DNA of 64,000 nt from Cryobacterium luteum. GTDB lineage: Bacteria; Actinomycetota; Actinomycetes; Actinomycetales; Microbacteriaceae. The notes under the pieces are model-generated. The model was not told where the DNA came from and did not search any database. It saw nothing but the letters and a program-made list of their open reading frames with translations. The stretch lies in assembly GCF_900110125.1 (NCBI RefSeq), contig NZ_FOCN01000016.1:1-64000 (forward strand), in the 5' to 3' direction. Position numbers and translations under genes: made by a program. This document shows, piece after piece, positions 4,631 through 62,757 of this stretch. The stretch's first letter is position 1; the number at the start of each line of letters is the position of its first letter.

Positions 4631-6688
4631 GTGCTCGCGATCACCCGCTTCATCACCGGCAAACGCACCGCGTGGGCGGTGTTGCTCGGCACCGTCATTG
4701 CCGTCGGGCTGCTGTTCACCCTGCTGCCGGCCAACGAATCCGAGGATTTTCCCGCCGCCGGTCTGCCGAAAACCAGCCAGGCCGCCCAGGTCACCGAGCT
4801 GCTCGCCGAGTTTCCCTCGGCCGACCAGACCGCCGCGATCGTGGTCTGGAGCCGGGACGGCGCCGAACTGACCGCGGGCGATCGCACCGCGATCACCGCC
4901 GCGGCTGAACAGCTCGGCGCCGCGTCGATCGCGCCGCGCGCCGCGACGCCGCAGTTCAGCGACGACGGCGAGGCCTCGCTGAGCGTGATGCCGCTGGAGG
5001 CGCTCGGGGCGACCGCCGACATCGAGAATACGGCCACCGACATCCGTCGGACGGCATCGGGCGGGCTGCCGAACGGGCTGACCGCCTACGTCACCGGGCC
5101 GGTCGGGTTTCAGGCCGACATCACCAATGCCTTCGCCGGAGCCGACTTTCGCCTGCTGCTGGTGACCGTCATCGTGGTCGCCGTGCTGCTCATCGTGACC
5201 TACCGCAGCCCCGTGCTCTGGATCGTGCCGCTCGTCGTGGTCGGGCTCGCCGACGGCCTCGCCGGCAAAGTGGCCGGCGCGCTGGCCGAACCACTCGGTT
5301 TCGCCCTCGACGCCTCGATCTCCGGCATCCTCTCTGTGCTGGTGTTCGGTGCCGGCACCAACTATGCGCTGCTGCTGGTGGCCCGCTACCGCGAAGAACT
5401 GCTACACACCGAGAGCCGCAATGTGGCGATGCGCACCGCGGTGACGAGCGCCGGCCCGGCCATCGCGGCCAGCGGCGGCACCGTCGCGCTGAGCCTCGCC
5501 ACCCTGGTCTTCGCCGAACTCGCCGGCAACCGCGCGCTCGGCATCGCCTGCGCGATCGGCGTGATCATCGCCATTCTGTTCGCCCTGCTCGTGTTGCCGG
5601 CCGCCCTCGTGGTGTGCGGGCGTGGCCTGTTCTGGCCGTTCATTCCCCGCGTGCAGGCCGAAGCCGCCGCCCCGCGCGCCGGCTTCTGGACCAGGCTCGG
5701 TCGGGGCGTGGCCCGGCACCCGGCGATCATCACAACCGTGTCGGTGCTCGCGATCGGTTCGCTCGCGTTCGGGCTGAACGGCGCCGCGGTGGGATTGTCG
5801 CAGGCAGACCAGTTGCTCGGCAACCCGGAGTCGGTCGTGGCGCAGAAAATTGTGGACGAGTCGTTTTCGGCGGGGCTGACCAGCCAGACGGTCGTGCTCG
5901 CTCCGGATGCGGCATCCGCTGACGCCGTAGCTGTTGCCCTCGCGACCCCCGGGGTGACCGCGGCGGTCGCCGGTGAGAACGCCGGCGGGCTCACCCGCAT
6001 TGACGTCACCCTCGACAGTGAACCGGGCAGCGACGAGACCTTCGATACGATCGCCGCGCTGCGCACCGACTTGGCGGATGCCCCGGCTGCGGTTTCGCAG
6101 TCGCTGGTCGGCGGCAGCGATGCCACGGCCCTCGACACGAAGACGAGCGCCGAGCGCGACCAGGCCCTGATCCTGCCGCTCATTCTGGGCATCGTCTTTC
6201 TGATTCTGGCGCTGCTGCTGCGCTCGCTCGTGGCGCCGGTGTTGCTCATAGCGACCGTGCTCGGTACCTTCTTCGCGAGCCTCGGCGCGTCGAACCTGAT
6301 CTTTCAGAATCTGCTCGGCTTCGCGGCGTTCGACACCAACGTCGTGTTGTTCTCGTTTCTGTTCCTGGTGGCGCTCGGCGTGGATTACAACATCTTCCTG
6401 ACCACCCGGGCCCGCGAAGAGGCCCGGCGTTACGGCACCCGGGAGGGCATGGTGCGGGCACTGTCGTCGACCGGCGCGGTGATCACGAGCGCCGGAATTC
6501 TGATCGCGGCGGTGTTCGCCGTGCTCGGGGTGCTGCCCGTCGTAGCGCTCACCCAGATCGGGGTGATCGTCTGCATTGGCGTGCTGCTCGACACCCTGGT
6601 CGTGCGCACCGTACTTGTGCCCGCCCTGGTCTTTCTGATCGACGACCGATTCTGGTGGCCGTCCCGGCCGGTTTCGACGCGCGGCTAG
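4631..6688 (+). CDS. MMPL-family RND transporter
   Basis: A 685-residue integral membrane protein with the duplicated RND plan: N-terminal helix (about 11-30), periplasmic loop, a block of about five helices (170-330), a second loop (380-510) and a second helix block (520-670). The paired MMPL signatures GAGTNYALLLVARYREEL and GVDYNIFLTTRAREEA are visible. Such proteins export lipids, drugs or hydrophobic compounds using proton motive force. It starts with GTG at 4631, preceded by GGAGGA. It is divergent from furA-katA and shares that promoter region. Substrate is unknown; being short, it is the simple MmpL type without long extensions. Confidence 0.9.
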   Translation: MLAITRFITGKRTAWAVLLGTVIAVGLLFTLLPANESEDFPAAGLPKTSQAAQVTELLAEFPSADQTAAIVVWSRDGAELTAGDRTAITAAAEQLGAASIAPRAATPQFSDDGEASLSVMPLEALGATADIENTATDIRRTASGGLPNGLTAYVTGPVGFQADITNAFAGADFRLLLVTVIVVAVLLIVTYRSPVLWIVPLVVVGLADGLAGKVAGALAEPLGFALDASISGILSVLVFGAGTNYALLLVARYREELLHTESRNVAMRTAVTSAGPAIAASGGTVALSLATLVFAELAGNRALGIACAIGVIIAILFALLVLPAALVVCGRGLFWPFIPRVQAEAAAPRAGFWTRLGRGVARHPAIITTVSVLAIGSLAFGLNGAAVGLSQADQLLGNPESVVAQKIVDESFSAGLTSQTVVLAPDAASADAVAVALATPGVTAAVAGENAGGLTRIDVTLDSEPGSDETFDTIAALRTDLADAPAAVSQSLVGGSDATALDTKTSAERDQALILPLILGIVFLILALLLRSLVAPVLLIATVLGTFFASLGASNLIFQNLLGFAAFDTNVVLFSFLFLVALGVDYNIFLTTRAREEARRYGTREGMVRALSSTGAVITSAGILIAAVFAVLGVLPVVALTQIGVIVCIGVLLDTLVVRTVLVPALVFLIDDRFWWPSRPVSTRG

Positions 6689-6732
6689 CGGGCCCGCCAG
6701 AACCGGCCCGCCACAAGCCAACCCGCCACAAC

Positions 6733-8163
6733 CTAGGCAGGCTCGGGCGGCACCCTGTCCTGCCAGCGGATGCGCCGCTCCAGCTGCGCTCCGAGCGCGA
6801 GCAGGGTGGCCTCGCCGCCCGGCCGGCCGATGAGCTGCACGCCCATCGGCAGGCCGTTCTCGGTCTGGTGCACCGGGAGCACGATGGCCGGCAGGCCGCT
6901 CACGTTGATCATCGAGGTGAACGGCGTGTACTGCACCTGCTGGGCGAAGTTGGCCTCGGCGTCGTCGGCGTCGTACCAGCCGACCGGACGCGGAGTGAGC
7001 GCCATGGCCGGGGTCAGCACGGCATCGAATTTTGACAGTTGGCGAATGAACGAGCGCTCGAACGCCGTCAGCGCGGCGAGCGCCTCGGCGAGGTCCCGGG
7101 CGCTGAGGGCGCGACCGCGGGCGAGCAGCCACTGGGTCAGCGGTTCAAGCAGGGCGATCTGGGCGTCGGTGTCGGCGGGGATGGTCGCCGCCCCGGCCTG
7201 CCAGAGGGCCCGGAACGCGGGCACGTAGCTCGGGTCGGGCTTGAGGGCCGTCTCCTCGAGCCCATGCTGCAGCGCGGCAAACCCGGCCACGGCCAGGTCG
7301 AGGGCGGCCTGTGCTTCCGGGGCGATCGTAATGTCATAAGCGTCGTCCCAGGCCGAGGTGGTCATCACGCCGAGCTGAAAACGGCCCTCGCCGCGGACTG
7401 CCGCCGCCAGCAGCGGCGTCTCGTCGCCGGGGGCGCGCAGGGCGTAGTGGTGGTCGGGGTGACCGTCTCGCGGCGCGATCATGGCGTCGAGCAGCAGCGC
7501 GGCATCCGCTACCGTGCGGGCGAGCGGACCGCCGACGGCCAGCCCGCCGAGCTTGTCGATGCCGGAAGCGGACGGCACCCGCCCACGGCCGGGCTTGAGC
7601 CCGACCAGCCCGCAGGCGGCGGCGGGAATGCGAATCGACCCGCCGCCGTCGGAGCCCGGCGCGAACGGCAGCAGGCGTGCGGCGACCGCGACGGCAGCGC
7701 CGCCGCTCGAGCCGCCGGCCCCGAGCGCAAGGTTCCACGGGGTGCGCGCCGGCGGGGCGGCGAGACTTTCGGTGTAGGAAGCGAGCCCGAATTCTGGGGT
7801 GTTGGTCTTGCCGAGGCTGACCCCGCCGGCGTCATCGAGCGCCTGCACGAGGTCGTCCGACTCGTCGGGCACGAAGCCCTCGAACAGCCGCGACCCGAAC
7901 CCGACTGGCACCCCGGCGCGCAGGTACAGGTCTTTGTCGGCGAACGGGAGGCCCCAGAGCGGCGCGGTACGCGGCATCCGCTCTTCGACGTAGCGCGCGC
8001 GGGCGCGGGCGGCGTGCGTGGTCACGGTGACGAACGCGCCGAGGGCCGGATTGAACTTTTCGATGCGCGCAAGGTAGTGCTCCGTGAGCTCGCTCGGACT
8101 GATCTCGCGGTTCTGCAGGGCCTGCCATTGTTCCAGGGCGGTCAGTTCGTGTGGATCAGCCAT
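6733..8163 (-). CDS. Amidase signature-family hydrolase
   Basis: A 476-residue cytoplasmic hydrolase of the amidase signature family, cleaving carboxamide bonds. The Ser-cisSer-Lys triad is visible: K77 in LPFADKDLY, the Ser of GGSSGG at 152-153 and the nucleophile S176 in SDGGGSIRIPAAACGLVG. It lacks the extra glutamine-channel features of GatA and no gatB/gatC is nearby, so a role in tRNA amidation is unlikely. Substrate is unknown. It stands alone between convergent and divergent neighbours. Confidence 0.9.
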   Translation of the reverse strand: MADPHELTALEQWQALQNREISPSELTEHYLARIEKFNPALGAFVTVTTHAARARARYVEERMPRTAPLWGLPFADKDLYLRAGVPVGFGSRLFEGFVPDESDDLVQALDDAGGVSLGKTNTPEFGLASYTESLAAPPARTPWNLALGAGGSSGGAAVAVAARLLPFAPGSDGGGSIRIPAAACGLVGLKPGRGRVPSASGIDKLGGLAVGGPLARTVADAALLLDAMIAPRDGHPDHHYALRAPGDETPLLAAAVRGEGRFQLGVMTTSAWDDAYDITIAPEAQAALDLAVAGFAALQHGLEETALKPDPSYVPAFRALWQAGAATIPADTDAQIALLEPLTQWLLARGRALSARDLAEALAALTAFERSFIRQLSKFDAVLTPAMALTPRPVGWYDADDAEANFAQQVQYTPFTSMINVSGLPAIVLPVHQTENGLPMGVQLIGRPGGEATLLALGAQLERRIRWQDRVPPEPA

Positions 8164-8240
8164 GTGCCGAGCCTAGTTCGACCCGGCGCGGCGACCGGCC
8201 ACCTCTGGTGATGCACGTCCGGGGCGGCTAGCCTCGAGCC

Positions 8241-9056
8241 ATGGCCAGCGCTTTGTACAATCCCATCGGCACCACCGCGCTCATCACCGGCGCGTCGAGC
8301 GGACTCGGCGTCGGGTACGCCCACGAGCTCGCCCAGCGCGGCGCAGATTTGGTGCTCGTCGCCCGCCGGCAGGCCCGCCTCGAAGCCCTCGCGGTGGACC
8401 TCGCCGAGAAATACGGCACCGTCTCGACGGTCATCCCCCTCGACCTCAGCACAGCGGATGCCGTGCCCGAGCTGGTCAGCGACCTGCGCGAGCGCGCGAT
8501 TACCATCGGCACGCTCGTGAACAATGCCGGCTTCGCGACCTTCGGCACGGTGCTCGACTCCGACGAGGAACGGGAACGCGAGCAGGTAGCCGTCAACGTG
8601 CACGCGCTGACCGCGCTGACCCACGCTTTTCTGCCCGACCTGGTCGAGACCGCGTCGCTGTACCCGCATACCGCGGCGCTCGTGAACCTCGCCAGCACGG
8701 CGGCGTTCCAGCCGGTGCCGCGCATGGCGGTCTACGGCGCGACCAAGGCCTACGTGCTCAGCTACACCGAAGCGGTCAGCTATGAAACGCGGGCGAGCGG
8801 CCTCAAGGTGACGGCGATCTGCCCGGGCCCGGCCGACACCGAATTCTTCGAGGTTGCCCAGACCAGCGGTGGCAAGAAGGGCACGCCGCTCACGGTCGAG
8901 GAGGTCATGCGCTCATCGTTCGCTGCGCTCGACCGGTCGGTGACGCCATCCGTGGTGCTGGTCGGCGCCCGCAACGCGCTGCTCGCCCGGGTCGCGAGCA
9001 TCTACCCCCGCCGGGCCGTGCTCAACGCGGTCGGTCGCCTGAACACGCCGCGCTGA
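8241..9056 (+). CDS. Short-chain dehydrogenase/reductase (SDR)
   Basis: A 271-residue classical SDR. The nucleotide-binding TGASSGLG lies at 16-23, NNAGF near 95, and the catalytic Tyr/Lys in VYGATKAYVLSYTE near 165; an upstream catalytic Ser is present in LASTAAF. The C-terminal part is longer than in minimal SDRs, as in the DltE/YqjQ-like subgroup. Predicted NAD(P)H-dependent oxidoreductase of the cytoplasm; substrate unknown. Transcribed alone. Confidence 0.88.
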   Translation: MASALYNPIGTTALITGASSGLGVGYAHELAQRGADLVLVARRQARLEALAVDLAEKYGTVSTVIPLDLSTADAVPELVSDLRERAITIGTLVNNAGFATFGTVLDSDEEREREQVAVNVHALTALTHAFLPDLVETASLYPHTAALVNLASTAAFQPVPRMAVYGATKAYVLSYTEAVSYETRASGLKVTAICPGPADTEFFEVAQTSGGKKGTPLTVEEVMRSSFAALDRSVTPSVVLVGARNALLARVASIYPRRAVLNAVGRLNTPR

Positions 9057-9108
9057 CCCGCGCTCGGGAGCCCGGCCCGGCCCCGCAACCGCTTGCGTTT
9101 GTGGGGCC

Positions 9109-9193
9109 AATTCAGGAAATCTGCTCCGCAGCGGATGCGCCGCCCCGTGATTTGCGCCTGGCGATCAGCGCCGAGACCTGGATTTCCTGAATT
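9109..9193. repeat. 13-bp perfect inverted repeat with 59-base loop
   Basis: AATTCAGGAAATC at 9109-9121 is exactly complementary to GATTTCCTGAATT at 9181-9193. The 180-bp gap between the convergent SDR and GNAT genes holds no gene. An imperfect GGCCCC...GGGGCC hairpin lies just to the left (9079-9108). The pair could be a bidirectional termination structure or the ends of a decayed small element. Confidence 0.55.
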
Positions 9194-9236: not shown

Positions 9237-9815
9237 CTACTTCAGGCTTTTCTGCAGCAGGATGGTGCCGAGCCAGCGCTCGAACTTGAAACCGACCTTG
9301 CCCATGCGGCCGATCTCCTCGAAACCGAAATCGCGGTGCAGTTTGATCGAGGCATCCGCTCCCTGGTCGGCGATGACGGCGATGATCTCCTTCAGGCCGG
9401 CCGCTTTGCACCGTCGGATCAGCTCGCCGAGCAGTTCACGCCCGAGTCCCTTACCGGTCGACGCGGCGCCGAGGTAGATCGAGTTCTCCACCGTGAACCG
9501 GTAAGCCCGTTTCTGCTTCCACGGGCTGACCAGGGCATACCCGAGAATCTGTCCGGCCGGCGAGACGGCGGTGATGAACGGCATCCCCTGCTTGTTCAGG
9601 TAGTAGAACTTATCGCGCCACTCGGCGAGCGTCATGGCATCTTCATCGAAGGTGACGGTGCTGTTGGCGACGAAATAGTTGTAGATCTCGCGAATGTGCG
9701 GCAGGTCGGTCGCCCGAACCTCACGCATCTCGTATTCGAACGGCGCCTCGGCCGCAATCTCCGGACGCAGATGGCGAGGCAGCCGACGACGAGGCGCGTA
9801 TTCTTCCTCAAGCAC
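9237..9815 (-). CDS. GNAT-family N-acetyltransferase
   Basis: A 192-residue protein whose residues about 28-185 form a GNAT fold of the phosphinothricin acetyltransferase/YncA type. It shows [27 protein letters not shown] at the N-terminus and the acetyl-CoA pyrophosphate loop GKGLGRELL near 122, then [22 protein letters not shown]. It would transfer acetyl from acetyl-CoA to an amine such as an amino acid or analogue. Its start overlaps the 3' end of ung by 8 bp, so it is probably the last gene of that minus-strand group. Confidence 0.88.
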
Positions 9816-10587
9816 CGGGCACTCCCCTTTCTGGTTGGTTCCAGATTACCGGAAGCTCCCAACGGACCGGCGCCGCCCCCTGCCGGGCGAGCAGGCGATT
9901 GGCCGCGCTGAACGGCGCCGAGCCGAAAAAGCCGCGGCGGGCTGACAACGGGCTCGGGTGCGCCGACTCCAGCACGGGCGTGTCGCCGAGCAGGGGCTTC
10001 AGGGTGCCGGCGTCTTTGCCCCACAGAATCGCCACGAGCGGATGCCGCCGCGCCACCAGCGCACGAATAGCCTGGTCGGTCACCGCCTCCCAGCCGTGCC
10101 GACGATGCGATCCGGCCGCCCCGGCGCGCACGCTGAGCACCCGGTTGAGCAGCAATACCCCCTGCTCGGACCAGGCCGAGAGGTCGCCGTGCTCGGGCCG
10201 CGGCAGTGTGAGGTCGGCGGCGAGTTCGGTGTAGATGTTGCCGAGGCTGCGCGGCAGCGGCCGCACGTGTGCGTTGACGGCGAAGGCCAGGCCGATCGGA
10301 TGCCCCGGCGTGGGGTAGGGATCCTGCCCCACGATGAGCACCCGCACCGCGGCGAACGGCTGACGAAAGGCCCGAAGCAGGTGCTCCGGCTCCGGCAGAA
10401 CCTCGTGCCCGGCTGCGCGTTCGGTCGCCAGGAACGAGCCGACCCTGGCCAGGTCGTCGGCTACGGGGGCGAGCGCCTGCGCCCAGCCCGGGTCGATCTG
10501 CCCGTTTGCGGCCAGCTCGTCGAGGGTCACGCGGTGACCATCCTGCCGCGCCCGCTGGCGCCCGCCGCCGGGCGCGGCGGCATCCAT
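9808..10587 (-). CDS. ung: Uracil-DNA glycosylase, family 1
   Basis: Excises uracil from DNA to start base-excision repair. Signatures of family 1 are GQDPYPTPG (catalytic Asp about 89), [10 protein letters not shown] and [17 protein letters not shown] (catalytic His and intercalation loop). At 259 residues it is slightly longer than usual (about 220-230). A GTG at 10530, beginning [16 protein letters not shown], would give a more typical N-terminus, so the first 19 residues are doubtful. It overlaps the GNAT gene downstream and follows the S51-type peptidase by 21 bases. Confidence 0.93.
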
Positions 10588-10608
10588 TTACCGGCTCGCA
10601 TCACCAGA

Positions 10609-11879: not shown

Positions 11880-11914
11880 CCGTCAATGCTAGCGACCATC
11901 CACACCATCCAAAA

Positions 11915-11950
11915 CGGATGCCGCGCTGCCAGCTGGCAGCGCGGCATCCG
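11915..11950 (-). terminator. Terminator of the prpDBC operon
   Basis: A perfect 16-bp stem with loop AGCT (CGGATGCCGCGCTGCC and its complement) lies 15 bases past the prpC stop. On the minus strand it is followed by TTTT, as in an intrinsic terminator. The stem is built from inverted copies of the GGATGC/GCATCC core of the word that recurs across the window. Confidence 0.88.
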
Positions 11951-11964
11951 CTTGCAGACAACGG

Positions 11965-14043: not shown

Positions 14044-15578
14044 TAGAAGATACCGTTCGGGGTGGCGATCGACTCGAGCAGTCCCGGCTTGGCCACGATG
14101 GTCAGGCCGCCGAGGTCGGCGGCAGTGAGCTCGGGCAGGCGCTGCGCGAGGGCGAGGAAGCGTTCGATCTCGGATTCCTCCATCACCGGCGCGGCGAGGG
14201 TGCGGAACTTGGTGATGTACTCGGCGCGGGCGAAGGGTCGAGCGCCCAGCGGATGCGCATCGGCCACGGCGATCTCGTCGACCAGGCGGGTTCCATCGGC
14301 CAGCTCGATTTCGACGCGACCGCCGAAGGCCTTCTCGGCCGGGTCGAGGGAGTGGTACCGACGCGTCCACTCCTGGTCTTCGGTCGTGGTGACGGTGTTC
14401 CACAGGGCGATCGTGTCGGGGCGGCCGGCACGCTCCGGGCTGTAGGAGTCGACGTGGTTCCAGCTGCCGTCCTGCAAGGCCACCGTGAAGATATAGGGAA
14501 TGGAGTGGTCGAGGGTTTCGCGGCTCGCGGTGGGGTCGTACTTCTGCGGGTCGTTGGCGCCGGAACCGATCACGTAGTGCGTATGGTGGCTGGTGTGGAG
14601 ACGTACGCTCTTAATGGCACCGGCCACCAGCAGTTCGGGGTGCTCGTTGTGCAGCTTGCGGGCCAGGTCGATCCAGGCCTGCGCCTGGTATTCGGCCGAA
14701 TGCTCCTTGGTGTAGCTGTCGAGGATGGCGCGCTTGGCGCTGCCGGCCGCCGGCAGCGACACGTCGTACGAGCCGTCCGGGCCGTCGAGCAGCCAGGCAA
14801 TGACGCCGTCTTCGCCCTCATAGATGGGGGTCGGGCTGGTCTCGCCGCGCAGCGCCCGGTCGACGGCTTCAACGGCCATCTTGCCGGCGAACGCCGGGGC
14901 GTGGGCCTTCCAACTGGAGATCTCGCCCTTGCGCGACTGGCGGGTGGCGGTCGTGGTGTGTAGCGCCTGGCCGACGGCCTGAAAGATGGTCTCCTTGTCG
15001 AGGCCGAGCAGGGTTCCGATGCCGGCGGCGACCGACGGGCCGAGGTGGGCGACGTGGTCGATCTTGTGCGCGTGCAGGCTGATCGATTTCACGAGGTCGA
15101 TCTGAATTTCATAGCCGGTGGCGATACCGCGAATCAGGGCGCTGCCGGTCAGCCCGCGCGACGTGGCGAGGTGCTGGGCGACGGCGACGATCGGCGGAAT
15201 GTTGTCGCCGGGGTGCGAGTACTCGGCGGCCAGAAAGGTGTCGTGGTAGTCCAGTTCACGCACGGCAACACCGTTGGCCCAGGCGGCCCACTCCGGGGAC
15301 ACCCGGCGGGCCGGCGCGAGGCCGAACACGGTCGAGCCGTCGCCACCGTTGGAACGCGGGTGGGCGAGCGCCTGCGAGCGGGCGGCAATCACCGGGCGAC
15401 GGGTCAGGCTCGCCGCAGCCACAGAGGCATTGTCGATCACGCGGTTGATGACCATCTCGGTCACGTCCTCGGAGACCAGGGCAGGGTCCGCGGCGACCTC
15501 GGCGATCTTCCAGGCCAGCTGGTCCTCGCGGGCCAGATTCTCGTCGCTCTTGTGAACTCGAACGTGGTGAAGCTGCAC
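14043..15578 (-). CDS. prpD: 2-methylcitrate dehydratase
   Basis: A 511-residue MmgE/PrpD-family protein that dehydrates 2-methylcitrate in the methylcitrate cycle. Features include [22 protein letters not shown] (substrate-site region), [21 protein letters not shown] and [17 protein letters not shown]. It starts with GTG at 15578, 14 bases after the prpR stop, and is coupled to prpB by a TAATG overlap. The C-terminal lid domain is present, so the gene looks intact. Confidence 0.95.
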
Positions 15579-46577: not shown

Positions 46578-47720
46578 ATGGCCGCGCTTCCGCCCGCCTC
46601 AGACCGAGGCGACAGTGACCTCGATCCAGCCTCCGGCCGGCACAGCGAGGCCGACGACCTGGCCGGGGAGGCCGGCGACACCTGGTGGTCCTCGGCCGAC
46701 GACGACGAACCCGAGTTCGACGAGTCGAGCGTGCGCGTGCGCCCCGGCCGTAAGGGCAGTAAGCCCCGTTCCAAGACCCGGCCGAGCCATCAGGACGCCC
46801 TGACCGGACGCATCCTCTCGGTCGACCGCGGACGCTACACCGTCATGCTCGACGAGAACCTGCCCACCGAACGGCGCATTACGACCGCGAGGGCGAGCGA
46901 GCTGCGCAAGAAGGCCGTCGTCAACGGCGACCGCGTCGACATCGTCGGCGACACCACCGGCGCCGAGGGCAGCCTGGCTCGCATCGTACGGATCGTGCCG
47001 CGGGACACCCTGCTCCGGCGCAGCGCCGACGACACCGACGCCGTCGAGCGCGTGATCGTCGCCAATGCCGACCAGATGCTCATCGTGGTCGCGGCCGCCA
47101 ACCCGGAGCCGCGCATCCGCTTGGTGGATCGCTACCTGGTCGCGGCCTACGACGCCGGCGTGAAGCCCATTCTGTGCATCACCAAGACCGACCTCGCCGA
47201 CCCGGCCGCGTTCCTGGCCAACTTCGCCGGCCTCGACCTGCCCGTGTTCCAGAGCGGTGAGGGCGGCATGCCGATCGAGGCGATCTCGGCGGCGCTGATC
47301 GGGCACGACACGGTCTTCGTCGGGCACTCCGGCGTCGGCAAATCCACCCTCGTGAACGCGCTCGTGCCCGGCACCAACCGGGCCATCGGCGTCGTCAACA
47401 CCGTGACCGGCCGCGGACGCCACACCTCGTCGTCGACCGTGTCACTGCGCCTGCAAACGGATGCCGGCCGCGGCTGGGTCATCGACACCCCCGGCGTGCG
47501 GTCCTTCGGCCTGGGCCACATCAACACCGACAACATCCTCAGGGCGTTCACCGACCTCGCTGCGATCGCCGAGCGCTGCCCGCGCGGCTGCACCCACCTG
47601 CCCGGCTCGCCGGACTGCGCGATCGTCGATGCCGTCGAGGCCGACGAGCTCGGCGACACCGGCCGGGTGCGCCTCGACTCGCTGCAGCGCCTGCTCGCGA
47701 CGTTCGCGCCCGCCCGCTGA
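46578..47720 (+). CDS. rsgA: Ribosome small-subunit-dependent GTPase A
   Basis: A 380-residue circularly permuted GTPase for late 30S assembly. After an acidic, low-complexity N-terminal extension (1-75) comes an OB fold, then G4 (ITKTD) before G1 (GHSGVGKST) and G3 (DTPGVRSF), then the zinc cluster CPRGCTHLPGSPDC. ATG follows the aroA stop directly, so the two are [12 protein letters not shown]. Confidence 0.95.
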   Translation: MAALPPASDRGDSDLDPASGRHSEADDLAGEAGDTWWSSADDDEPEFDESSVRVRPGRKGSKPRSKTRPSHQDALTGRILSVDRGRYTVMLDENLPTERRITTARASELRKKAVVNGDRVDIVGDTTGAEGSLARIVRIVPRDTLLRRSADDTDAVERVIVANADQMLIVVAAANPEPRIRLVDRYLVAAYDAGVKPILCITKTDLADPAAFLANFAGLDLPVFQSGEGGMPIEAISAALIGHDTVFVGHSGVGKSTLVNALVPGTNRAIGVVNTVTGRGRHTSSSTVSLRLQTDAGRGWVIDTPGVRSFGLGHINTDNILRAFTDLAAIAERCPRGCTHLPGSPDCAIVDAVEADELGDTGRVRLDSLQRLLATFAPAR

Positions 47721-49289: not shown

Positions 49290-49494
49290 GGCGCGCGACG
49301 GGCATCCGCTGCCGGGCGCACCTTATGCAACCGGGCCCATGATCTAATCTGGGCCCAGTTTCCGGGACCGGGCCCGGAAACATGTCCACGCGGGCCGTCT
49401 CCGGAAGTGCCACGGTCCGTTCCGGCCGCGCGACCGGCATCCGCTTGCTGGGCCCACCCTATGAACGTGGGCCCAGTTTCTAAACTGGGCCCAT
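49290..49494. repeat. Tandem imperfect direct repeat rich in GGGCCC
   Basis: Two related units of about 70 bases start near 49295 and 49430 (period 135). Both read GAC, GGCATCCGCT, a GGGC-rich stretch, ACC, TATG, AAC, then GGGCCCA twice. Unit 2 includes a 12+12 inverted repeat (49468-49493: TGGGCCCAGTTT, CT, complement). Between units there is a GTTTCCGGG/CCCGGAAAC inverted pair (49358-49381). This 348-bp gap between whiB1 and pdtaS holds no gene. Confidence 0.7.
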
Positions 49495-49531: not shown

Positions 49532-51025
49532 CTAATTCTCCTGCATGAAACGCAGGGGGATCTCGATGGTGACCTCGGTGCCGCTGCCCATCATGGTGTG
49601 CCAGTCGATAGTGCCGCCGAGTTCGCCCTGAATGAGGGTACGCACGATCTGCGTGCCGAGGCCCGAACCGACCTTGCCCTCCGGCAGGCCGGCGCCGGTG
49701 TCGCGCACCATCACGGTGAGGGTCTCGTCGCTGCGCTGCGCCTCGATCGACACCTCACCTTCGCGTCCGGCCAGGCCGTGCTCGACCGCGTTGGTGACGA
49801 GTTCGGTCAGCACGAGCGCGAGCGGTGTCGCGTACGCGCTCGGCAGCGTTCCGAAACTGCCAAAGGACTTCGGATGCACGGTGGTGTTGTGAGCGGATGC
49901 GACCTCCACCGTCAGCAGCAGCACCCGTTCGAAGACGGCGTCGAAGTCGACAATCTGGCTGAGCCCCTCCGAGAGGGTGTCGTGCACGACCGCGATGGCC
50001 GCGACCCGCCGCATCGCCTGGGTCAGCGCCTCGCGCGCGCGGTCGGACTGGGTGCGCCGTGCCTGGATGCGCAGCAGCGACGCGACGGTCTGCAAGTTGT
50101 TCTTGACCCGGTGATGAATCTCTCGAATGGTGGCATCCTTGGTGATCAGCTCCCGTTCCTGATGCCGCAGCTCGGTGACGTCTCGGGAGAGAATGATCGC
50201 GCCGACCCGTTCGCCGCGGTTGCGAATGGGAATCGCGCGCAGCGACACCGTCACCCCGCGCGCTTCGATATCGGTGCGCCACGGCGCGCGCCCGGTAACC
50301 ACGAGGGGCAGAGACTCGTCGACGACGGCGGTGCCGGTGAGCAGGCCGGTGGTGACTTCAGCGAGCGACTCGCCCTCGAGTTCCTCGGCGAAGCCCATGC
50401 GGTTGAATGCGGAGAGCGCATTCGGGCTGGCAAAGGTGGTCAGGCCGTCGACATCGAGCCGCAGCAGGCCGTCCGATGCGCGCGGGGCGCCGCGGCGCGG
50501 CCCGGTCGGGGCGCCGAGGTCGGGAAAGTCCCCGGAGGCGATCATGGCGAACAGATCGTTTGCGCAGTCGTTGAAGGTGAGCTCCTGACGGCTCGGCGTA
50601 CGTGCCTCACTCAGGTTGGTGTGGCGGGTGAGCACCGCCACCGGGGAAGGCGCCACCTCGGCACCGGTCGTGCTCAGCCGACGCAGCACCGGGATGGCAC
50701 GCACCCGAGTGGGAGTTTCCTCGTACCAGTCGGGGGCCGTGGTATCGACGATCTTGGCGGTCTCGAACGCTTCGGTGACCTGATTGCGCCACTCGGCCTT
50801 GACCTGCTGACCGACGAAGTCCCGATAGAACAGGGTGGCGGCACTCGACGGGCGCGCGTGCGCGACCGCCACGAAGTTGCCGGAACTCGTCGGAACCCAC
50901 ACGACGATATCCGCGAAGGCGAGGTCAGCCAGCAGCTGGCCGTCCGCAACGAGCATGTGCAGCCAGTCCACATCTTCCGCGCTGCTGCGGCCCTGGGCAA
51001 GTACGAGATCACTGAGAGTCGACAC
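49532..51025 (-). CDS. pdtaS: Cytoplasmic sensor histidine kinase PdtaS
   Basis: A 497-residue soluble kinase. Residues 1-160 form the GAF-like sensor (STLSDLVLAQGRSSAEDVDWLHMLVADGQLLADLAFADIVVW in segments typical of PdtaS), a PAS domain follows (about 175-295), then HisKA_2 with phospho-acceptor in REIHHRVKNNLQT and an HWE-like ATPase (NAVEHGLAG, DTGAGLP). In mycobacteria PdtaS phosphorylates the RNA-binding antiterminator PdtaR; no pdtaR is in this window. Start GTG at 51025; an in-frame GTG 6 bases upstream is possible. Confidence 0.92.
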   Translation of the reverse strand: MSTLSDLVLAQGRSSAEDVDWLHMLVADGQLLADLAFADIVVWVPTSSGNFVAVAHARPSSAATLFYRDFVGQQVKAEWRNQVTEAFETAKIVDTTAPDWYEETPTRVRAIPVLRRLSTTGAEVAPSPVAVLTRHTNLSEARTPSRQELTFNDCANDLFAMIASGDFPDLGAPTGPRRGAPRASDGLLRLDVDGLTTFASPNALSAFNRMGFAEELEGESLAEVTTGLLTGTAVVDESLPLVVTGRAPWRTDIEARGVTVSLRAIPIRNRGERVGAIILSRDVTELRHQERELITKDATIREIHHRVKNNLQTVASLLRIQARRTQSDRAREALTQAMRRVAAIAVVHDTLSEGLSQIVDFDAVFERVLLLTVEVASAHNTTVHPKSFGSFGTLPSAYATPLALVLTELVTNAVEHGLAGREGEVSIEAQRSDETLTVMVRDTGAGLPEGKVGSGLGTQIVRTLIQGELGGTIDWHTMMGSGTEVTIEIPLRFMQEN

Positions 51026-53313: not shown

Positions 53314-54579
53314 TCACTGCGCCGGGGCCGCCTTGCGGGCGGGCCACCACGCGCGCCGCGGCATCCGCTTTGATGCCTGAGCCGGAGCGACGATGAGTTC
53401 TTCCAACACAAAACGACGGATGCCCAGGCGCACCGGAGACTTCGGGCTCGCGTCCCGCAGGGTGCGACCGGTGAGTATCGCCACGTCGAGGGCTCCCTGG
53501 TCGTGCGGCACCAGAACGGGATCCTGGATACTGCCGTAACGCAGCAGCATGGCCGCCACCTGACCGCGTGGATTCAGCCCGACAGCGCTCGACCGTACCT
53601 GGTTCATCACGACGCTGACCGTGGTGCTCCCGATCGTTTCGGTGAGGTCGCTCCAGGTGCGCAGAAACCGGGCCATGCCGACCGGGTCGGCCAGCCCGCA
53701 GGCGACGACGTGATCGGCCACGCGCAGGGCCGTGATGGTGGCCGCATTGCGGCGGGGTGCCCGAAGGTCGCTGGACAACTCTTCGTCGCTCTCGAGGTTG
53801 AAGCCGGTGTCGAGCACCACGTAATCCGTCCAGTGCCGCAGCGCGTCGATGGTGCGGGTGACGCGCTCCGTGGAGAGTTCGGGCCAGCGTGACGACAGGC
53901 CGAGGCCGGTGAGCACCCAGAAGGCGCCCTTGGGCGAGTTGTACCGCTGAGCGATGCGTTCCAGTTCCGATTGGTTCAGGCTGTCGCTGCCGGCCAGCCG
54001 GCACGCGGCCGCGAAGCCCGGTGCCTCATCGAGCATGCCGAGGCTCGGTGCGATCGAGGCACTGTAGGTGTCGAGGTCGGCCAACACCACGGTGTGGCCG
54101 GCCGCGGCGATTTCCGCGGCGATGTTGATGGCGAGGGTGGTCCGTCCGGGAGCGCCCGACGGCCCCCAGACCGCGATCACCGAACCGGTATTGAGCGCGC
54201 CGCCGGTGAGTTGCCGCTCCCCCACACGCAACGGAACGACGACGCCCGACACAAGCAGGTCCTCGATGTTCGACCAGTCGCAGGGGATCGCTACCGTTTC
54301 GTAGAGGCCGAGCGTGCCGGCGTGGCGCCGTTCCTGTTCCGTCGCGGTGAGGGCGACCACCCGGATTCCGCGTTCGTCACAGGCGGCGATCAACTGACCG
54401 GTCAATGATTCCCGGCGGCCGCTGACCACCACGACGTGCGGCTGTCCGTGGGAGAGAGTCTCCAGAAATTCGCGGGCGGTGTCAACGCGCGTGACCACGC
54501 TGTGATTGCAGTCGATGATGTCGGACAGCATGCGCTGTTCGGTGGCCCGGTCCAGAACGAGCGCGAGCCGGGCCATCAC
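53314..54579 (-). CDS. CpaE/MinD-like P-loop ATPase
   Basis: A 421-residue protein: receiver-like N-terminus (1-110, VVVSGRRESLTGQLIAACDERGIRVVALT), then a ParA/MinD-type ATPase. The deviant Walker A reads GPSGAPGRTTLAINIA, without the signature Lys of MinD/ParA at the first position; Walker B-like VVLADLDTYSASIAP and DYVVLDTGFNLES follow. It ends with a basic tail. In tad loci CpaE positions the pilus apparatus. It overlaps the SAF gene (GTGA); the other tad genes are absent. Confidence 0.85.
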   Translation of the reverse strand: MMARLALVLDRATEQRMLSDIIDCNHSVVTRVDTAREFLETLSHGQPHVVVVSGRRESLTGQLIAACDERGIRVVALTATEQERRHAGTLGLYETVAIPCDWSNIEDLLVSGVVVPLRVGERQLTGGALNTGSVIAVWGPSGAPGRTTLAINIAAEIAAAGHTVVLADLDTYSASIAPSLGMLDEAPGFAAACRLAGSDSLNQSELERIAQRYNSPKGAFWVLTGLGLSSRWPELSTERVTRTIDALRHWTDYVVLDTGFNLESDEELSSDLRAPRRNAATITALRVADHVVACGLADPVGMARFLRTWSDLTETIGSTTVSVVMNQVRSSAVGLNPRGQVAAMLLRYGSIQDPVLVPHDQGALDVAILTGRTLRDASPKSPVRLGIRRFVLEELIVAPAQASKRMPRRAWWPARKAAPAQ

Positions 54580-55268: not shown

Positions 55269-55895
55269 CTAGTGCAGGCGAACGATATGGATCTGCCAGA
55301 ACGGGACCAGGTTGTAGTGCAAAACGTCGGGCGTGCGGCGCAAGGTTCCCAGCGGATGCACCGCCAGATCGAGGTGGTCACGCGCCACCCGGTCGATGGT
55401 GCCGATCAGGACACCGCCCTTGGTATGGAGTTCCACGGTGCGTCGTCGGCGGCACAGGCTGCTCAGCACGAAGGGGAATCCGACGCGTTCGGTCTGCCTG
55501 CCGGCGGCCTCTGACTCGATGGCGAGCGAGGCCTGACTCTGCTGTTCGGTCAGCAACACACCGGCAACGGCCGACAGCGGGATCACACACTCCACCGGAT
55601 TGTTGGCCGCACCGGGCAGGTCGGCCGCCAGCCAGTCCAGCCCGAGCGTCGTCGGGCGGAGGGTGAGAGTCTCGCCGGTCACCAGCACCACGCGGATCTG
55701 AAGTGCACCGCCGACACCGGCGGAACGCAGGACGTTGCTGATCCGGGTGCGCAGGGAGAGTTTTTCCAGGCGCTGGCGTTCCGCTTGCAGGCTGAGGTCA
55801 GCTGCCGCGGAGCTCAGCGCGCGGTCGAGCTGCCCTTCGAGGTCGTCAAACAGATCATCCCAGCGCACAGGTAGAAAGTAGCCGACACCGAGCAT
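55269..55895 (-). CDS. Hypothetical protein with LSm-like C-terminal half
   Basis: A 208-residue protein beginning near RWDDLFDDLEGQLDRALSS, with a helical N-terminus (15-60), then beta-rich segments LQIRVVLVTGETLTLRPTTLGLDWLAADL and RTVELHTKGGVLIGTIDRVARDHLDLAVHP, which resemble LSm/SRP-like barrels. Start could be ATG 55895 or a GTG at 55868. First gene of the SAF/CpaE-like group. Family not named by me. Confidence 0.7.
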   Translation of the reverse strand: MLGVGYFLPVRWDDLFDDLEGQLDRALSSAAADLSLQAERQRLEKLSLRTRISNVLRSAGVGGALQIRVVLVTGETLTLRPTTLGLDWLAADLPGAANNPVECVIPLSAVAGVLLTEQQSQASLAIESEAAGRQTERVGFPFVLSSLCRRRRTVELHTKGGVLIGTIDRVARDHLDLAVHPLGTLRRTPDVLHYNLVPFWQIHIVRLH

Positions 55896-56520: not shown

Positions 56521-59328
<2,808 letters not shown>

Positions 59329-59465
59329 GAATGTACTCCACTAGTCAAACGGTGCGGGCAGGTACTGCGGCAGCCCAATCGAACTACCGCAGCACACGCC
59401 TGCACCTCTCGTCTGGCAGATGCCAGAGCACCGACCTGGTCGGCGGCTAAGGCAATGCTAGTTGG

Positions 59466-60170
59466 TCAGTTGGCACGCCCGCTGGCAACGGGCACAGCCT
59501 CCTGCAGCTCCTCGCCCGAACCGTCGAGTTCGATGACCCCGTAGTCCCAGCCCTTACGCCGGTACACCACGCTGGGACGTTTGGTCTCCAGGTCCTGGAA
59601 TAGGTAGAAGTCGTGGCCGACGAGCTCCATGAAGTACAGGGCATCGTCAACGGACATCGGGGCTGCCGCGAAGACTTTGCGACGGATGACGACGGGGCAG
59701 TATTCTTCCTCTTCGGCGACGGCGGGAGCATCCGCTTGCACGATGGGAATCGCGCCGGTGCGTACCCGTTCGAGAGTTTCCGGGTTGGCCGGTGTGATGT
59801 CGATGACGCTGAAACCGACAGCGGACGCCTCGTGCAGTGAGGTGGGACGGTGGGCGCCGCCGCGGTGCACCTTCTTGCGGTCCTTGGCCCGGCGAACCCG
59901 CTCGAGCAGACGGCCAAGAGCCACATCAAAAGCGGCGTACTTGTCGGATCCGTCAGCTTCGGCCCGCACCAGAGGACCCTTGCCGATCAGGGTGAGTTCG
60001 ACTCGATCGTTGCCGGCGGCAGCACCGTTCTTCTCGTGGTGGCGGCTGACCTTGATCTCGAGCGCGAGGGCTTTCTCGGCGAGGAGGGCGATTTTCTCGG
60101 CCTTCTCCGTGGCGTACTCGCGGAAGCGATCAGTGATCCCCAGGTTGCGTCCGACGATGTTAGTTTCCAT
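59466..60170 (-). CDS. hpf: Long-form hibernation promoting factor
   Basis: A 234-residue ribosome hibernation factor: N-terminal S30AE domain (1-105, METNIVGRNLGITDRFREYATEKAEKIALL) and C-terminal dimerisation domain (180-225, YCPVVIRRKVFAAAPMSVDDALYFMELVGHDFYLFQ). It pairs 70S ribosomes into 100S dimers in stationary phase. GGAGG precedes ATG 60170 by 5 bases; the longer in-frame reading upstream is rejected. Confidence 0.96.
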   Translation of the reverse strand: METNIVGRNLGITDRFREYATEKAEKIALLAEKALALEIKVSRHHEKNGAAAGNDRVELTLIGKGPLVRAEADGSDKYAAFDVALGRLLERVRRAKDRKKVHRGGAHRPTSLHEASAVGFSVIDITPANPETLERVRTGAIPIVQADAPAVAEEEEYCPVVIRRKVFAAAPMSVDDALYFMELVGHDFYLFQDLETKRPSVVYRRKGWDYGVIELDGSGEELQEAVPVASGRAN

Positions 60171-60256
60171 GACGACCTCCAGTTTGGCGGACCGCCCCAA
60201 AACCGGGCGATCATTGCGCGCCTTTGTCTCCACCGTAGCCGTGGCGGTGAGATATG

Positions 60257-60961
60257 TCACAGTATTTGTCGATCAGTTTGCCCAGAGCTCGAAGACGGAG
60301 GCAGCCGACGCCGTGTTTGCGCCAGTGTGGCCAGGCCGACGACGATACCGCCCGCAGCGAACACGGCGCGCCGCGCCTCGAGCAGGGTCGCACCGGTGGT
60401 CACGATGTCGTCGACGAGGATCACCCTCGTTCCATTGAGCGGATGCCGCGCGACGAGGCTGTTGCTTTTGTTCGCGACGCGCGCCGCGCGGCCGAGGCCG
60501 ACCTGGTCGACGGATTCCCCGCGCTGCGCGAGCGCCGGGATCGGGTACAGCCCAGCCCGGTGCAGCAGGGCATCGACCGGGTGGTAACCGCGCAGGCGCC
60601 AGGCCAGGCGGGACGAGGGAATGGTGACGAGCTGGATGCCGCCGCCGTTCCCACGCGGGACGGCGGCGAGCGCGGCCACGATGGCCGCTCGCAGCGGCGC
60701 GGCGAGCGCACCGGCGGCATCCGTTCGACCACCGTCTTTGTAGGCGGCGATCACGTGGCGGGCCACCCCTTCGTAGCTCAGGGCCGCCCAGACGAGTGCA
60801 TCGTCGCGCGTGACCGAATGCACCGCCGGGAGCAGGGCCAACCGGCAGCTTGAACACAGGGCGCGGTCGAGGGCACCGCAGCCGCTGCACGCGGTCGGCA
60901 GGACCGTGGCCCAGGCATCCAGTCCCGCAGCGGTCAGTCGAGTGCGCAGCCCTCGCATCAT
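60257..60961 (-). CDS. comF: ComF-family phosphoribosyltransferase-like protein
   Basis: A roughly 234-residue protein: a four-Cys zinc motif at the N-terminus (CSGCGALDRALCSSC) and a C-terminal PRPP-binding RVILVDDIVTTGATL. ComF proteins take part in DNA uptake in competent bacteria; in others their role is unclear. Start ATG 60961, 60958 or a GTG at 61033 are all possible. It follows lpqB, as in mycobacteria. Confidence 0.9.
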   Translation of the reverse strand: MMRGLRTRLTAAGLDAWATVLPTACSGCGALDRALCSSCRLALLPAVHSVTRDDALVWAALSYEGVARHVIAAYKDGGRTDAAGALAAPLRAAIVAALAAVPRGNGGGIQLVTIPSSRLAWRLRGYHPVDALLHRAGLYPIPALAQRGESVDQVGLGRAARVANKSNSLVARHPLNGTRVILVDDIVTTGATLLEARRAVFAAGGIVVGLATLAQTRRRLPPSSSSGQTDRQIL

Positions 60962-61059
60962 CGGGCCAGTCTTCCGCGTGCATGCGGCGTGCGGGGCGCC
61001 AACTCTCCACCCGTGCAGGAACGCCTCTGGCACCGCCTGGGGAGGAGACGGCCGACCGG

Positions 61060-62757
61060 CTAGCTGCCGAGGCCCTGTTGGGTGGCCAGCAGGATCACGT
61101 CGTCGATGCGGGCCTGCCAGCCCGCTCCCCGCTGCACCTCCAGGCTGCCGGTGTCGGTGATTACGCGCAGGTCGCGCACGGAGTTGCTGCCGACGATGAA
61201 CCGGCTGCTCGCCGGGGATTCCAGGACGGAGCTGACGCCGCCGATCTGCTGCGCCACGATGCGTGCCTCACCGCTCGGCAGGGTGCTGAGCGACGCCACG
61301 GTCAATTCGTCGATCCAGGTTGCGTCGAGGCCGGCCCCGCCGCCCGCCGCCAACAGCACGGGCGCGCCGAGGCCGGTCGGCGCCTGCTCGGTGCGAATGA
61401 TGGACGCGACGACGAAACGGGTCTCCGAGCCGGTGCCGAGCAGGGCGATCAGCCGGGCGCCGTCCCTCGAGATTTTCAGGGCCGTGATCGAGGTGGCTTC
61501 GGGCCACGGCGTCGGCAGCACGGTCGCCTCTCCCGTTGGGCTGTAGACGACCAGGGCGGTCGGATCGTTTGACGGCACCGACCAGACGAAGCGGTCGTTG
61601 TCGATCGACGGCGCCAGGAGCCCAGCGCGCGCGTCGAGCAATTCGGGCTCGCCGCCGTCACGCACGACGTAAACGCCGTCGCTGTTCAGCACGGCGGCTG
61701 AAGCCTGGCCAGACGCCAGCGTCACCGCGGTGGGGGCCAGTTGGGCGATGGTCGCAGACAGCCCGTCCAGCGGGGTGACGCTCTGCCCGGTGGCGGCCAG
61801 AAAACCGAATTCGTCCCCGCGCAGCACGAGGGCGCGGGCGTCCACGCGCGGATCGATGACGGGAGCCCCGGTCTCGACGTCGTCGATGGCCTGGAAGTTC
61901 TGGTCGATGGTGATCTCGACCGTGAGGCCGGACGGCAGGCTCGCCGCCAGCTGCGCTTTCATGCGCTGCAGCGTCTGCCGGTCAGCGTTGAGTGCTTCGC
62001 TGTTCAGGTCGACCATGGCCTGGCGCCCAACCACCTGTACGGCGTCGGCGGTGAGCTTGGAGCCTTCCGGAAACGCCGTGGCGACCGCTCCGGTCAGCCA
62101 GGCGCTCGGTCCGTTCAAGACGGCGTTGACCAGCTTGGTGGGAGCGGATGCCCCGCGCGGAAACCAGCGCAGGTCCGGAACCAGGAACCGAAAGCCGGGA
62201 TCGTAGAAGTACACGGGTTGGGCGCTAAACACGTCGTTGAACGTGTTTTCGTCGATCACGGTGCCGTTCGGGGCCGAGCTGATGCGCCACTGGCCGCCGA
62301 TCTGCTGAAACTCGTAGCGTAATGGGACCGGACTGGCGTCGACCTCACGGTATTCCCCCGCCTGGTCAACCTCGGCCACCGGCGTGACGGCAACCAGGGT
62401 GGTGCCGTCGTCGATGACCGTCAGGGTGCGCCCGGAGCCGTTGTCGACGGTGACCCCCGCCGTGGCATCCCAGCTGGATTGGAAGGCCGGGGCCAGGAAC
62501 TGGCGGGCGATGTCGTAATTGTTCTCAGGGCTCGAGGAGGCGTCGATGAAGCCCCGCAGAATCGATTCCGGCGCGGCATCCTTTTGCGGCAGCGCCGGCA
62601 GAAATACCGGGGCTGGATTGTCGTCGGGTGCGATGTCGTTGCCGGCGTGCACCGCACCGTCGCGCGGAATGCCGGTGCAGCCCCCCAGACCGACGGCGAG
62701 GCTGATGGCGACGAGCAGCGCCGGGAAGACGCGGCGGCGAGGTGTGCGCTCAGTCAT
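61060..62757 (-). CDS. lpqB: Lipoprotein LpqB, MtrAB accessory
   Basis: A 565-residue lipoprotein. The signal peptide (residues 8-28) ends in the lipobox LGGC, with acylation at the Cys. A GerMN domain lies about 190-320 (QPVYFYDPGFRFLVPDLRWFPRGASAPTKLVNAVL), followed by a beta-propeller-like C-terminal half. It interacts with MtrB and modulates its signalling. ATG 62757 overlaps the mtrB 3' end by 8 bp; the Pro-rich upstream reading is mtrB repeat DNA. Confidence 0.95.
   Translation of the reverse strand: MTERTPRRRVFPALLVAISLAVGLGGCTGIPRDGAVHAGNDIAPDDNPAPVFLPALPQKDAAPESILRGFIDASSSPENNYDIARQFLAPAFQSSWDATAGVTVDNGSGRTLTVIDDGTTLVAVTPVAEVDQAGEYREVDASPVPLRYEFQQIGGQWRISSAPNGTVIDENTFNDVFSAQPVYFYDPGFRFLVPDLRWFPRGASAPTKLVNAVLNGPSAWLTGAVATAFPEGSKLTADAVQVVGRQAMVDLNSEALNADRQTLQRMKAQLAASLPSGLTVEITIDQNFQAIDDVETGAPVIDPRVDARALVLRGDEFGFLAATGQSVTPLDGLSATIAQLAPTAVTLASGQASAAVLNSDGVYVVRDGGEPELLDARAGLLAPSIDNDRFVWSVPSNDPTALVVYSPTGEATVLPTPWPEATSITALKISRDGARLIALLGTGSETRFVVASIIRTEQAPTGLGAPVLLAAGGGAGLDATWIDELTVASLSTLPSGEARIVAQQIGGVSSVLESPASSRFIVGSNSVRDLRVITDTGSLEVQRGAGWQARIDDVILLATQQGLGS

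What the first reader, a model, noticed from the sequence alone, without database searches (positions are those of the whole stretch)
5912..62151. Nine-base word AGCGGATGC recurs 26 times on both strands across the window
By eye I find 13 forward copies (6765, 8453, 9130, 10037, 14248, 20977, 28909, 32463, 45278, 49892, 55351, 60438, 62143) and 13 reverse copies GCATCCGCT (5912, 7502, 7974, 9352, 11944, 24461, 26554, 40302, 45375, 49302, 49437, 53361, 59728). From composition alone about one copy would be expected if G+C is near two thirds. It occurs in all coding frames and in gaps, and an inverted pair of its core forms the prpC terminator stem. This resembles DNA-uptake signal sequences (which often form terminators) or chromosome-orienting/recombination words. 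A comF gene is also present, although ComF alone does not show competence.
Basis: partly seen in the sequence, partly recalled or inferred. Interest (0 to 1): 0.8.

Follow-up and report, generated by a model that had tools for sequence, protein, structure and literature searches.

The report
Genome-wide DNA word of uptake-signal type
A short DNA word, repeated hundreds to thousands of times in many genomes of one family of mostly soil and water bacteria and spelled slightly differently in different branches, looks like a self-recognition tag for taking up DNA, a kind of tag so far described in two unrelated Gram-negative families.

Summary
The window holds 27 copies (13+14). The genome holds 1,460, against 145 for the reversed word. 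Synonymous-codon shuffles predict 19-23 coding copies in the 708 kb read; 219 are there.

The shared core, CGGATGCC, is enriched in much of the Microbacteriaceae. None of 200 sampled genomes from 16 other families of the order exceeds about 170 per Mb, against 543 here. Branches spell it differently: ARCGGATGCC in one Cryobacterium clade, CGGATCC in genus g32 and in one g78 species, GGATGCCG in another g78 species.

It shows no strand polarity along a sampled complete chromosome and almost no conserved flanks. It is scarce in low-GC regions and in three phages, and is kept at orthologous sites within a dialect group.

Best reading: a DNA-uptake word maintained by biased transformation, perhaps through ComEA/EC and a Tad pilus. 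Uptake and receptor are untested. Tad loci associate with the word, but a prediction built on that failed in 6 of 7 newly sampled genomes. Recombination-hotspot, methylation and nucleoid-binding readings remain open.

The parts
5912..5920 (-). word AGCGGATGC
   Evidence: in gene 4631-6688
6765..6773 (+). word AGCGGATGC
   Evidence: in gene 6733-8163
7502..7510 (-). word AGCGGATGC
7974..7982 (-). word AGCGGATGC
8453..8461 (+). word AGCGGATGC
9130..9138 (+). word AGCGGATGC, outside called genes
9352..9360 (-). word AGCGGATGC
10037..10045 (+). word AGCGGATGC
11913..11952 (.). inverted pair AACGGATGC (11913, +) and AGCGGATGC (11944, -): perfect 16-bp hairpin, terminator-like, past the end of the prpC-like gene
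14248..14256 (+). word AGCGGATGC
20977..20985 (+). word AGCGGATGC
24461..24469 (-). word AGCGGATGC
26554..26562 (-). word AGCGGATGC
28909..28917 (+). word AGCGGATGC
32463..32471 (+). word AGCGGATGC
40301..40309 (-). word AGCGGATGC (reader gave 40302)
45278..45286 (+). word AGCGGATGC
45375..45383 (-). word AGCGGATGC
49302..49310 (-). word AGCGGATGC, outside called genes
49437..49445 (-). word AGCGGATGC, outside called genes
49892..49900 (+). word AGCGGATGC
53361..53369 (-). word AGCGGATGC
55351..55359 (+). word AGCGGATGC
59728..59736 (-). word AGCGGATGC
60438..60446 (+). word AGCGGATGC, inside the ComF-type gene
62143..62151 (+). word AGCGGATGC
47456..47464 (+). variant AACGGATGC; seven more on the minus strand at 18309, 22145, 27562, 34509, 34899, 47827, 60717
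   Evidence: in the 708 kb sample this variant is 18-19 times enriched over codon shuffles
60257..61033 (-). ComF-type gene (zinc finger plus phosphoribosyltransferase motif)
   Evidence: name from recalled motifs, no family search

Best explanation
The word is the local dialect (A-R-CGGATGC-C) of a family-wide self-recognition word of DNA-uptake-sequence type. Inferred mechanism: during natural transformation a surface protein, perhaps a minor component of a Tad/Flp competence pilus feeding ComEA/ComEC, binds DNA that carries the GGATG core and its graded flanks. DNA of the same lineage is then taken up and recombined more often. Biased gene conversion turns near-matches into full words, so they accumulate on both strands wherever the protein sequence allows, while foreign DNA stays poor in them. 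Receptor changes produce dialects; loss of uptake or of specificity lets the words decay. Shown here: the enrichment, its independence of codon usage in the sample, lack of polarity, dialects around a shared core, clade clustering of one dialect, retention at orthologous sites, scarcity in low-GC regions and in three phages. Not shown: uptake, the receptor, and the link to the pilus.
For: Codon-shuffle excess 219 against 18.9, and 110 against 6 for AACGGATGC; CGGATGCC is also in excess in the sampled parts of G109, G360, G151, G228 and G381. None of 200 genomes from 16 other families exceeds about 170 CGGATGCC per Mb, against 543 here (densities by hand). Non-polar: 203 forward and 190 reverse over 20 stretches of a 3.2 Mb single-contig genome. 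Dialects: 9 of 9 g32 genomes and G204 carry about 5,500-6,600 CGGATCC each, reversed-word controls 35-162; the ARC dialect needs 2 changes on a comEC tree of 27 loci, against 7.1 for shuffled labels (0 of 500 as low). Word sites are exactly kept in 37% of aligned comparisons between ARC-dialect species, against 15.5% for nearby 9-mers. Ten-kb bins under 63% G+C hold 0.75-1.9 ARCGGATGC, those at 65-69% hold 6.5-8.4. Three Microbacterium phages hold 0-0.13 core words per kb, three Microbacterium loci 0.5-0.9. Machinery: ComEC in 72 of 72; two or more TadE hits in 30 of 35 word-rich against 10 of 37 word-poor genomes, 18 of 21 against 7 of 23 genera, one tied genus dropped (not tree-corrected). 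Micrococcus luteus needs two tad loci and comEA/EC for transformation (PMC4322843, passages). Two Microbacteriaceae are naturally transformable (PMC11577799, passages). Weakly suggestive of drive: one-mismatch neighbours inside the GGATG core are below expectation, 123 against 146 here and 216 against 285 in G381 (hand sums).
Against: No uptake assay for a word-rich species was found, and no receptor. I predicted that word-poor genomes with two TadE hits would carry another dialect: of 7 newly sampled, 6 showed none and G074 showed a 2.9-fold GGATGCG excess. ComEC and ComEA do not separate word-rich from word-poor genomes. Density is equal in coding and non-coding DNA (0.55 and 0.54 per kb; 1.02 and 0.84 in G381), unlike the non-coding preference reported for known uptake words (PMC1939737, passages). 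Towards other Cryobacterium the retention advantage is small (12.4% against 8.6%), gaps are commoner at word sites (16.7% against 6.7%) and 512 of 948 comparisons did not align. The transformable relatives Rhodoluna and Aurantimicrobium are small-genome species, and the one Aurantimicrobium locus read has 0.05 core words per kb, so uptake in this family does not seem to need the word. The deficit of near-matches is uneven: core positions 4 and 6 show none.
Confidence: 0.6

Rival explanations
1. A Chi-like recombination word: the end-processing helicase-nuclease (AdnAB type in these bacteria, recalled) pauses or switches at the word, so selection spreads it through the chromosome.
For: Hundreds to thousands of copies, family-specific, scarce in the phages and low-GC regions tested; lineage-specific variants are also known for Chi (recalled; PMC8022716, search listing only).
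Against: RecC is absent from 72 of 72 genomes tested, so canonical RecBCD is unlikely. No polarity over a sampled complete chromosome, whereas E. coli Chi is oriented (recalled). AdnAB was not searched.
Confidence: 0.16
2. A methyltransferase or other DNA-modification site, as proposed for cyanobacterial HIP1, maintained by repair or replication bias around the modified base.
For: The GGATG core and the GGATCC of the other dialect match known Type II restriction sites (recalled). HIP1 shows that such words can reach high copy numbers (PMC4390886, search listing and start of abstract only).
Against: The word is not palindromic and has about 10 informative bases with graded tolerance; HIP1 is a palindrome. 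No methyltransferase was tested.
Confidence: 0.1
3. Binding site of an abundant nucleoid, segregation or condensin-loading protein, unrelated to uptake.
For: Spread over both strands and over coding and non-coding DNA.
Against: Apparent dialect switching and loss within one genus (G204 and G389 in g78) are hard to square with a core chromosomal function; scarcity in low-GC regions is not required.
Confidence: 0.09
4. Composition, codon or dipeptide usage, or a dispersed repeat element.
For: The two commonest frame classes read Ala-Asp-Ala and Ala-Ser-Ala (72 and 66 of 219).
Against: Synonymous shuffles within genes keep every protein fixed and predict 11.6 times fewer copies. Flanks carry at most 0.13 bits per base beyond the word and the base after it, and 2 of 393 sites have flanks 75% like another site.
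Confidence: 0.03

Closest known systems
DNA uptake sequence (DUS) of Neisseriaceae, receptor ComP
   Same: Abundant family-restricted word with a small fixed core and dialects that follow the core-genome tree (PMC3630211, passages); no orientation bias (PMC1939737, passages); link to terminators (recalled; PMC1852404, listing).
   Different: Gram-positive actinobacteria; N-methyl T4a pilins absent in 11 of 35 word-rich genomes (counted by hand); no ComP was sought; no non-coding preference; uptake not tested.
Uptake signal sequence (USS) of Pasteurellaceae
   Same: 9-bp word with weaker extension and two dialects, a majority of copies within genes in H. influenzae (PMC12616744, passages; PMC1939737, passages).
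   Different: Different inner core (GCGG there, GGATG here), no AT-rich tail, different cell envelope.
Chi and RecBCD
   Same: Genome-wide short non-palindromic word.
   Different: RecC not found in 72 genomes, no polarity.
HIP1 of cyanobacteria
   Same: Very high copy word that is low in some lineages (PMC4390886, listing and start of abstract).
   Different: HIP1 is a palindrome; this word is not.

Membership tests
DUS/USS | Strong genome-wide excess over a codon-aware model | tested here: met
   219 against 18.9 on 18% of the genome; other species
DUS/USS | No orientation bias along the chromosome | tested here: met
   203/190 over 20 stretches of G381; 750/710 in the own draft genome
DUS/USS | Dialects with a shared core that follow phylogeny | tested here: met
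   tree test for one dialect in one genus only
DUS/USS | Scarce in foreign DNA | tested here: met
   70 bins of 10 kb by G+C and parts of three phages
DUS/USS | Over-represented in non-coding DNA | tested here: not met
   0.54 against 0.55 per kb; 0.84 against 1.02 in G381
DUS/USS | Inverted pairs, some as terminators | tested here: inconclusive
   9 inverted pairs within 40 bases against about 4.7 expected; one clear terminator-like hairpin
DUS/USS | Competence machinery present | tested here: met
   ComEC 72 of 72, but not discriminating
DUS/USS | Word promotes uptake or transformation | not testable with these tools
   needs an assay
DUS/USS | Word-specific receptor in the pilus | tested here: inconclusive
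   TadE association only; comparison of tad loci could not be made
Chi | RecBCD present | tested here: not met
   RecC 0 of 72
Chi | Orientation along the replication arms | tested here: not met
KOPS or other FtsK-guiding words | Strand polarity switching at ori and ter | tested here: not met
HIP1 | Palindromic word | tested here: not met
   read from the sequence
HIP1 | Cognate methyltransferase | not tested
   no search made
REP, MITE or other dispersed repeat | Similar flanks around the word | tested here: not met
   2 of 393 sites

The most novel reading that the evidence does not exclude
Much of an actinobacterial family marks its DNA with a dialect-bearing uptake word read by a Tad/Flp-pilus competence system: an independent origin of self-recognising transformation, outside Gram-negative bacteria and outside T4a pili. 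Dialect switches would act as barriers to gene flow between closely related species.
Probability: 0.5. Interest if true: 0.93.

Novelty: new variant of a known kind. Interest (0 to 1): 0.82.

Why it matters
Sequence-specific DNA uptake is documented for Neisseriaceae and Pasteurellaceae, and the searches made listed no report of it in Actinomycetota (open-licence papers only, and only the top 15 of 233 and 25 of 4,280 papers were listed). If this word works the same way, the trait arose independently, probably with a different pilus, and a family with hundreds of sequenced species, several dialects, apparent losses and two transformable members becomes a test bed for why such words evolve and whether they isolate species. 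Even if it proves to be another kind of word, an 11-fold codon-independent excess, common in one family and not seen in 200 sampled genomes from other families of its order, needs an explanation.

Tried and rejected
Maximum-order Markov test inside the window gives no excess (27 against 27.6), because the sub-words are enriched; replaced by synonymous-codon shuffles.

Apparent strand polarity in the place listing (only '+' rows for several genomes) was a listing artefact: direct reading of one such genome found both strands.

ComEC as discriminator: in 72 of 72 genomes. N-methyl pilins: in 38 of 72. ComEA: the motif was found in 19 of 22 named loci searched, word-rich and word-poor; the two Agromyces loci and the Aurantimicrobium locus gave no hit. 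An earlier, stricter motif found 1 of 22.

Prediction that two-TadE word-poor genomes carry other dialects: failed in 6 of 7. The 40-80 kb samples have limited power: G204 was scored as having no strong word (CGGATCC 38 against 16.7) before one search showed 6,303 CGGATCC genome-wide.

Limits of the counts. The word-rich classes use cut-offs that I chose after seeing the counts (220 CGGATGCC or 1,500 CGGATCC per Mb), and so does the ARC label (0.3 per kb). Neither the Fisher tests nor the retention test is corrected for relatedness. The reversed-word control is not codon-aware; codon-aware tests were run on parts of 24 genomes. Other families of the order were scanned for CGGATGCC only, so other words there would be missed; genomes of family f4 reach up to about 4 times their reversed-word control at up to 160 per Mb and were not tested against codons. 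Genome sizes of relatives are rounded, so densities are approximate. The comEC tree used 25 of the 26 Cryobacterium loci (one short locus left out) and two outgroups.

I also recounted the close pairs as 9 inverted and 3 direct. One weakens and one strengthens the reading a little, so the odds stand.

Plasmids: one search gave no usable Microbacteriaceae plasmid.
Full report
What is there. The window lies in a draft genome of 3,834,069 bases in 73 contigs. Its genus is Cryobacterium: a same-genus genome, G001, has a comEC contig of 20,013 bases that matches C. adonitolivorans NZ_SOFL01000007.1 by length and 100% ComEC identity. AGCGGATGC occurs 13 times forward and 14 times reverse in the window. 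The genome has 750 and 710 copies, against 67 and 78 for the reversed word.

Is it more than codons? In 708 kb of the genome I called 556 genes with a simple ORF caller and shuffled synonymous codons within each gene, keeping proteins and codon usage. The word is seen 219 times in coding sequence against 18.9 expected, the largest excess among 9-mers seen at least 15 times; AACGGATGC follows with 110 against 6. Single-base variants show which bases matter: a change inside the GGATG core brings the count to 0.3-1.4 times expectation, while position 2 accepts A, G and partly C, position 3 partly A or T, and position 9 T and partly A. One-mismatch neighbours within the core are a little below expectation, 123 against 146, and 216 against 285 in G381; the deficit lies in the inner positions (46 against 79 at positions 5, 7 and 8) and is absent at positions 4 and 6 (hand sums). 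The motif is about A-R-CGGATGC-C, with at most 0.13 bits per base further out. It is not part of a longer repeat: 2 of 393 sites have flanks 75% like any other site.

Where it sits. In genes the word is on the coding strand 92 times and on the other 127 times. Coding and non-coding densities are the same (0.55 and 0.54 per kb). Gaps between sites have a coefficient of variation of 1.19, near random. Twelve neighbouring pairs lie within 40 bases where 9.4 are expected; 9 of the 12 are inverted. One intergenic inverted pair in the window makes a 16-bp perfect hairpin after the prpC-like gene. Word density rises with G+C over 70 ten-kb bins (Spearman 0.67): 16 bins under 63% G+C hold 0.75-1.9 words on average, 40 bins at 65-69% hold 6.5-8.4. 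Three contigs without AGCGGATGC in the part read (C55, C60, C65) gave 10 proteins for a Pfam scan; two of them, both on C55, are an IS110-type transposase and an integrase-core protein, and the rest are transporters, enzymes, a HipA-like protein and others. Parts of three Microbacterium phages hold 6 in 46 kb, 0 in 22 kb and 1 in 22 kb of the core CGGATGCC, whereas three Microbacterium comEC loci hold 0.5-0.9 per kb.

Polarity. I sampled 20 stretches of 20 kb, evenly spaced, from the single-contig genome G381. CGGATGCC stands 203 times forward and 190 reverse, with no stretch strongly one-sided. Chromosome-orienting words and a polar Chi are therefore not supported.

Distribution. In the genus scan 28 of 57 genomes have at least 264 forward copies of AGCGGATGC and the other 29 have at most 189. 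The low ones are not without the system: G020 has 244 AGCGGATGC but 2,028 CGGATGCC, and codon-aware tests of parts of G001, G002 and G003 find the same core with other bases in front. In 348 family genomes from 78 genera the core ranges from background (8 copies in a 1.4 Mb genome) to about 4,100 copies. In 218 genomes of the order, 18 of the family and 200 from 16 other families, the highest value outside the family that I could find by eye is about 170 per Mb (G592), against 543 here; two of the 18 family members (G204, G389) are also below 180 per Mb. Only this one word was counted outside the family.

Dialects. Codon-aware counts give CGGATCC in G087 of g32 (71 against 10.7 in 40 kb), GGATGCCG in G151 of g78 (49 against 13.4), CGGATGCG in G228 of g72 (20 against 4.5), and a weaker GGATGCG in G074 of g19 (37 against 12.6). 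A count of CGGATCC in 80 chosen genomes found about 5,500-6,600 copies in 9 of 9 g32 genomes, 6,303 in G204 of g78 (which has only 313 CGGATGCC) and 4,111 in G170 of g54 (which has 3,548 CGGATGCC too), against 60-2,222 in the other 69. This 7-mer count is not codon-controlled genome-wide. In 25 Cryobacterium loci and two outgroups the ARC dialect (8 loci) needs 2 changes on a comEC tree, where shuffled labels need 7.1 on average and 0 of 500 do as well; 7 of the 8 form one clade. Between ARC-dialect species the word is exactly kept in 156 of 419 aligned comparisons (37%), against 15.5% for 9-mers 30-60 bases away; 134 comparisons did not align. Towards other Cryobacterium the figures are 54 of 436 (12.4%) against 8.6%, with more gaps at word sites than nearby (16.7% against 6.7%) and 512 unaligned. 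Differences are more often substitutions than gaps in both sets.

Machinery. ComEC is in 72 of 72 genomes chosen to span high and low counts. TadE is found twice or more in 30 of 35 word-rich and 10 of 37 word-poor genomes. Micrococcus luteus, an actinobacterial competence model, needs two tad clusters plus comEA/EC (PMC4322843, passages). Two small-genome Microbacteriaceae, Rhodoluna lacicola and Aurantimicrobium photophilum, take up DNA naturally (PMC11577799, passages); the locus of another Aurantimicrobium that I read is word-poor. The Tad association is not corrected for relatedness or genome size, and the prediction I drew from it failed in 6 of 7 genomes. RecC was found in none of 72.

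Reading. The combination of codon-independent excess, a fixed core with graded flanks, lineage dialects, balance on both strands, scarcity in low-GC regions and phages, and retention within a dialect group is that of DUS and USS words (PMC3630211, PMC1939737, PMC12616744; passages). What differs is the host group, the lack of non-coding preference and, probably, the pilus. I therefore say that it behaves like an uptake word, with 0.6 confidence, and do not file it as a proven DUS: function is untested and one usual feature is not met.

Literature. Searches for uptake sequences with Actinobacteria, Microbacteriaceae or Gram-positive terms, for competence in the family and for the words themselves listed no paper describing this word. 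The lists were capped: 15 of 233 papers, 25 of 4,280, 12 of 26, 20 of 132. Subscription papers and preprints are not in that library.

Noticed in passing
G381, coding DNA of 20 sampled stretches (L140-L159): TGAGAGGTGA and overlapping 10-mers occur 13 times against 0 to 0.6 expected from codon shuffles: probably a local tandem or dispersed repeat.
   Followed up: no
own genome C51:173831-219115: Seven N-methyl type IV pilin hits in three clusters within 45 kb, in a family where 11 of 35 word-rich genomes have none.
   Followed up: no
G170 (g54): Carries both CGGATGCC (3,548) and CGGATCC (4,111), whereas its genus mate G109 has 4,041 and 880: possibly a dialect change in progress.
   Followed up: no
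G389 (g78): Low in both known dialects (619 and 725) although genus mates are rich and it has three TadE hits: recent loss or an unknown dialect.
   Followed up: no
window 1-64000: A second set of frequent 9-mers around CTGCTCGGC (24 copies in the window; 122 against 42.7 codon-shuffled in 708 kb). Similar words recur in word-poor family members (GCCGAGC in G155 and G165), so probably codon-context bias.
   Followed up: partly
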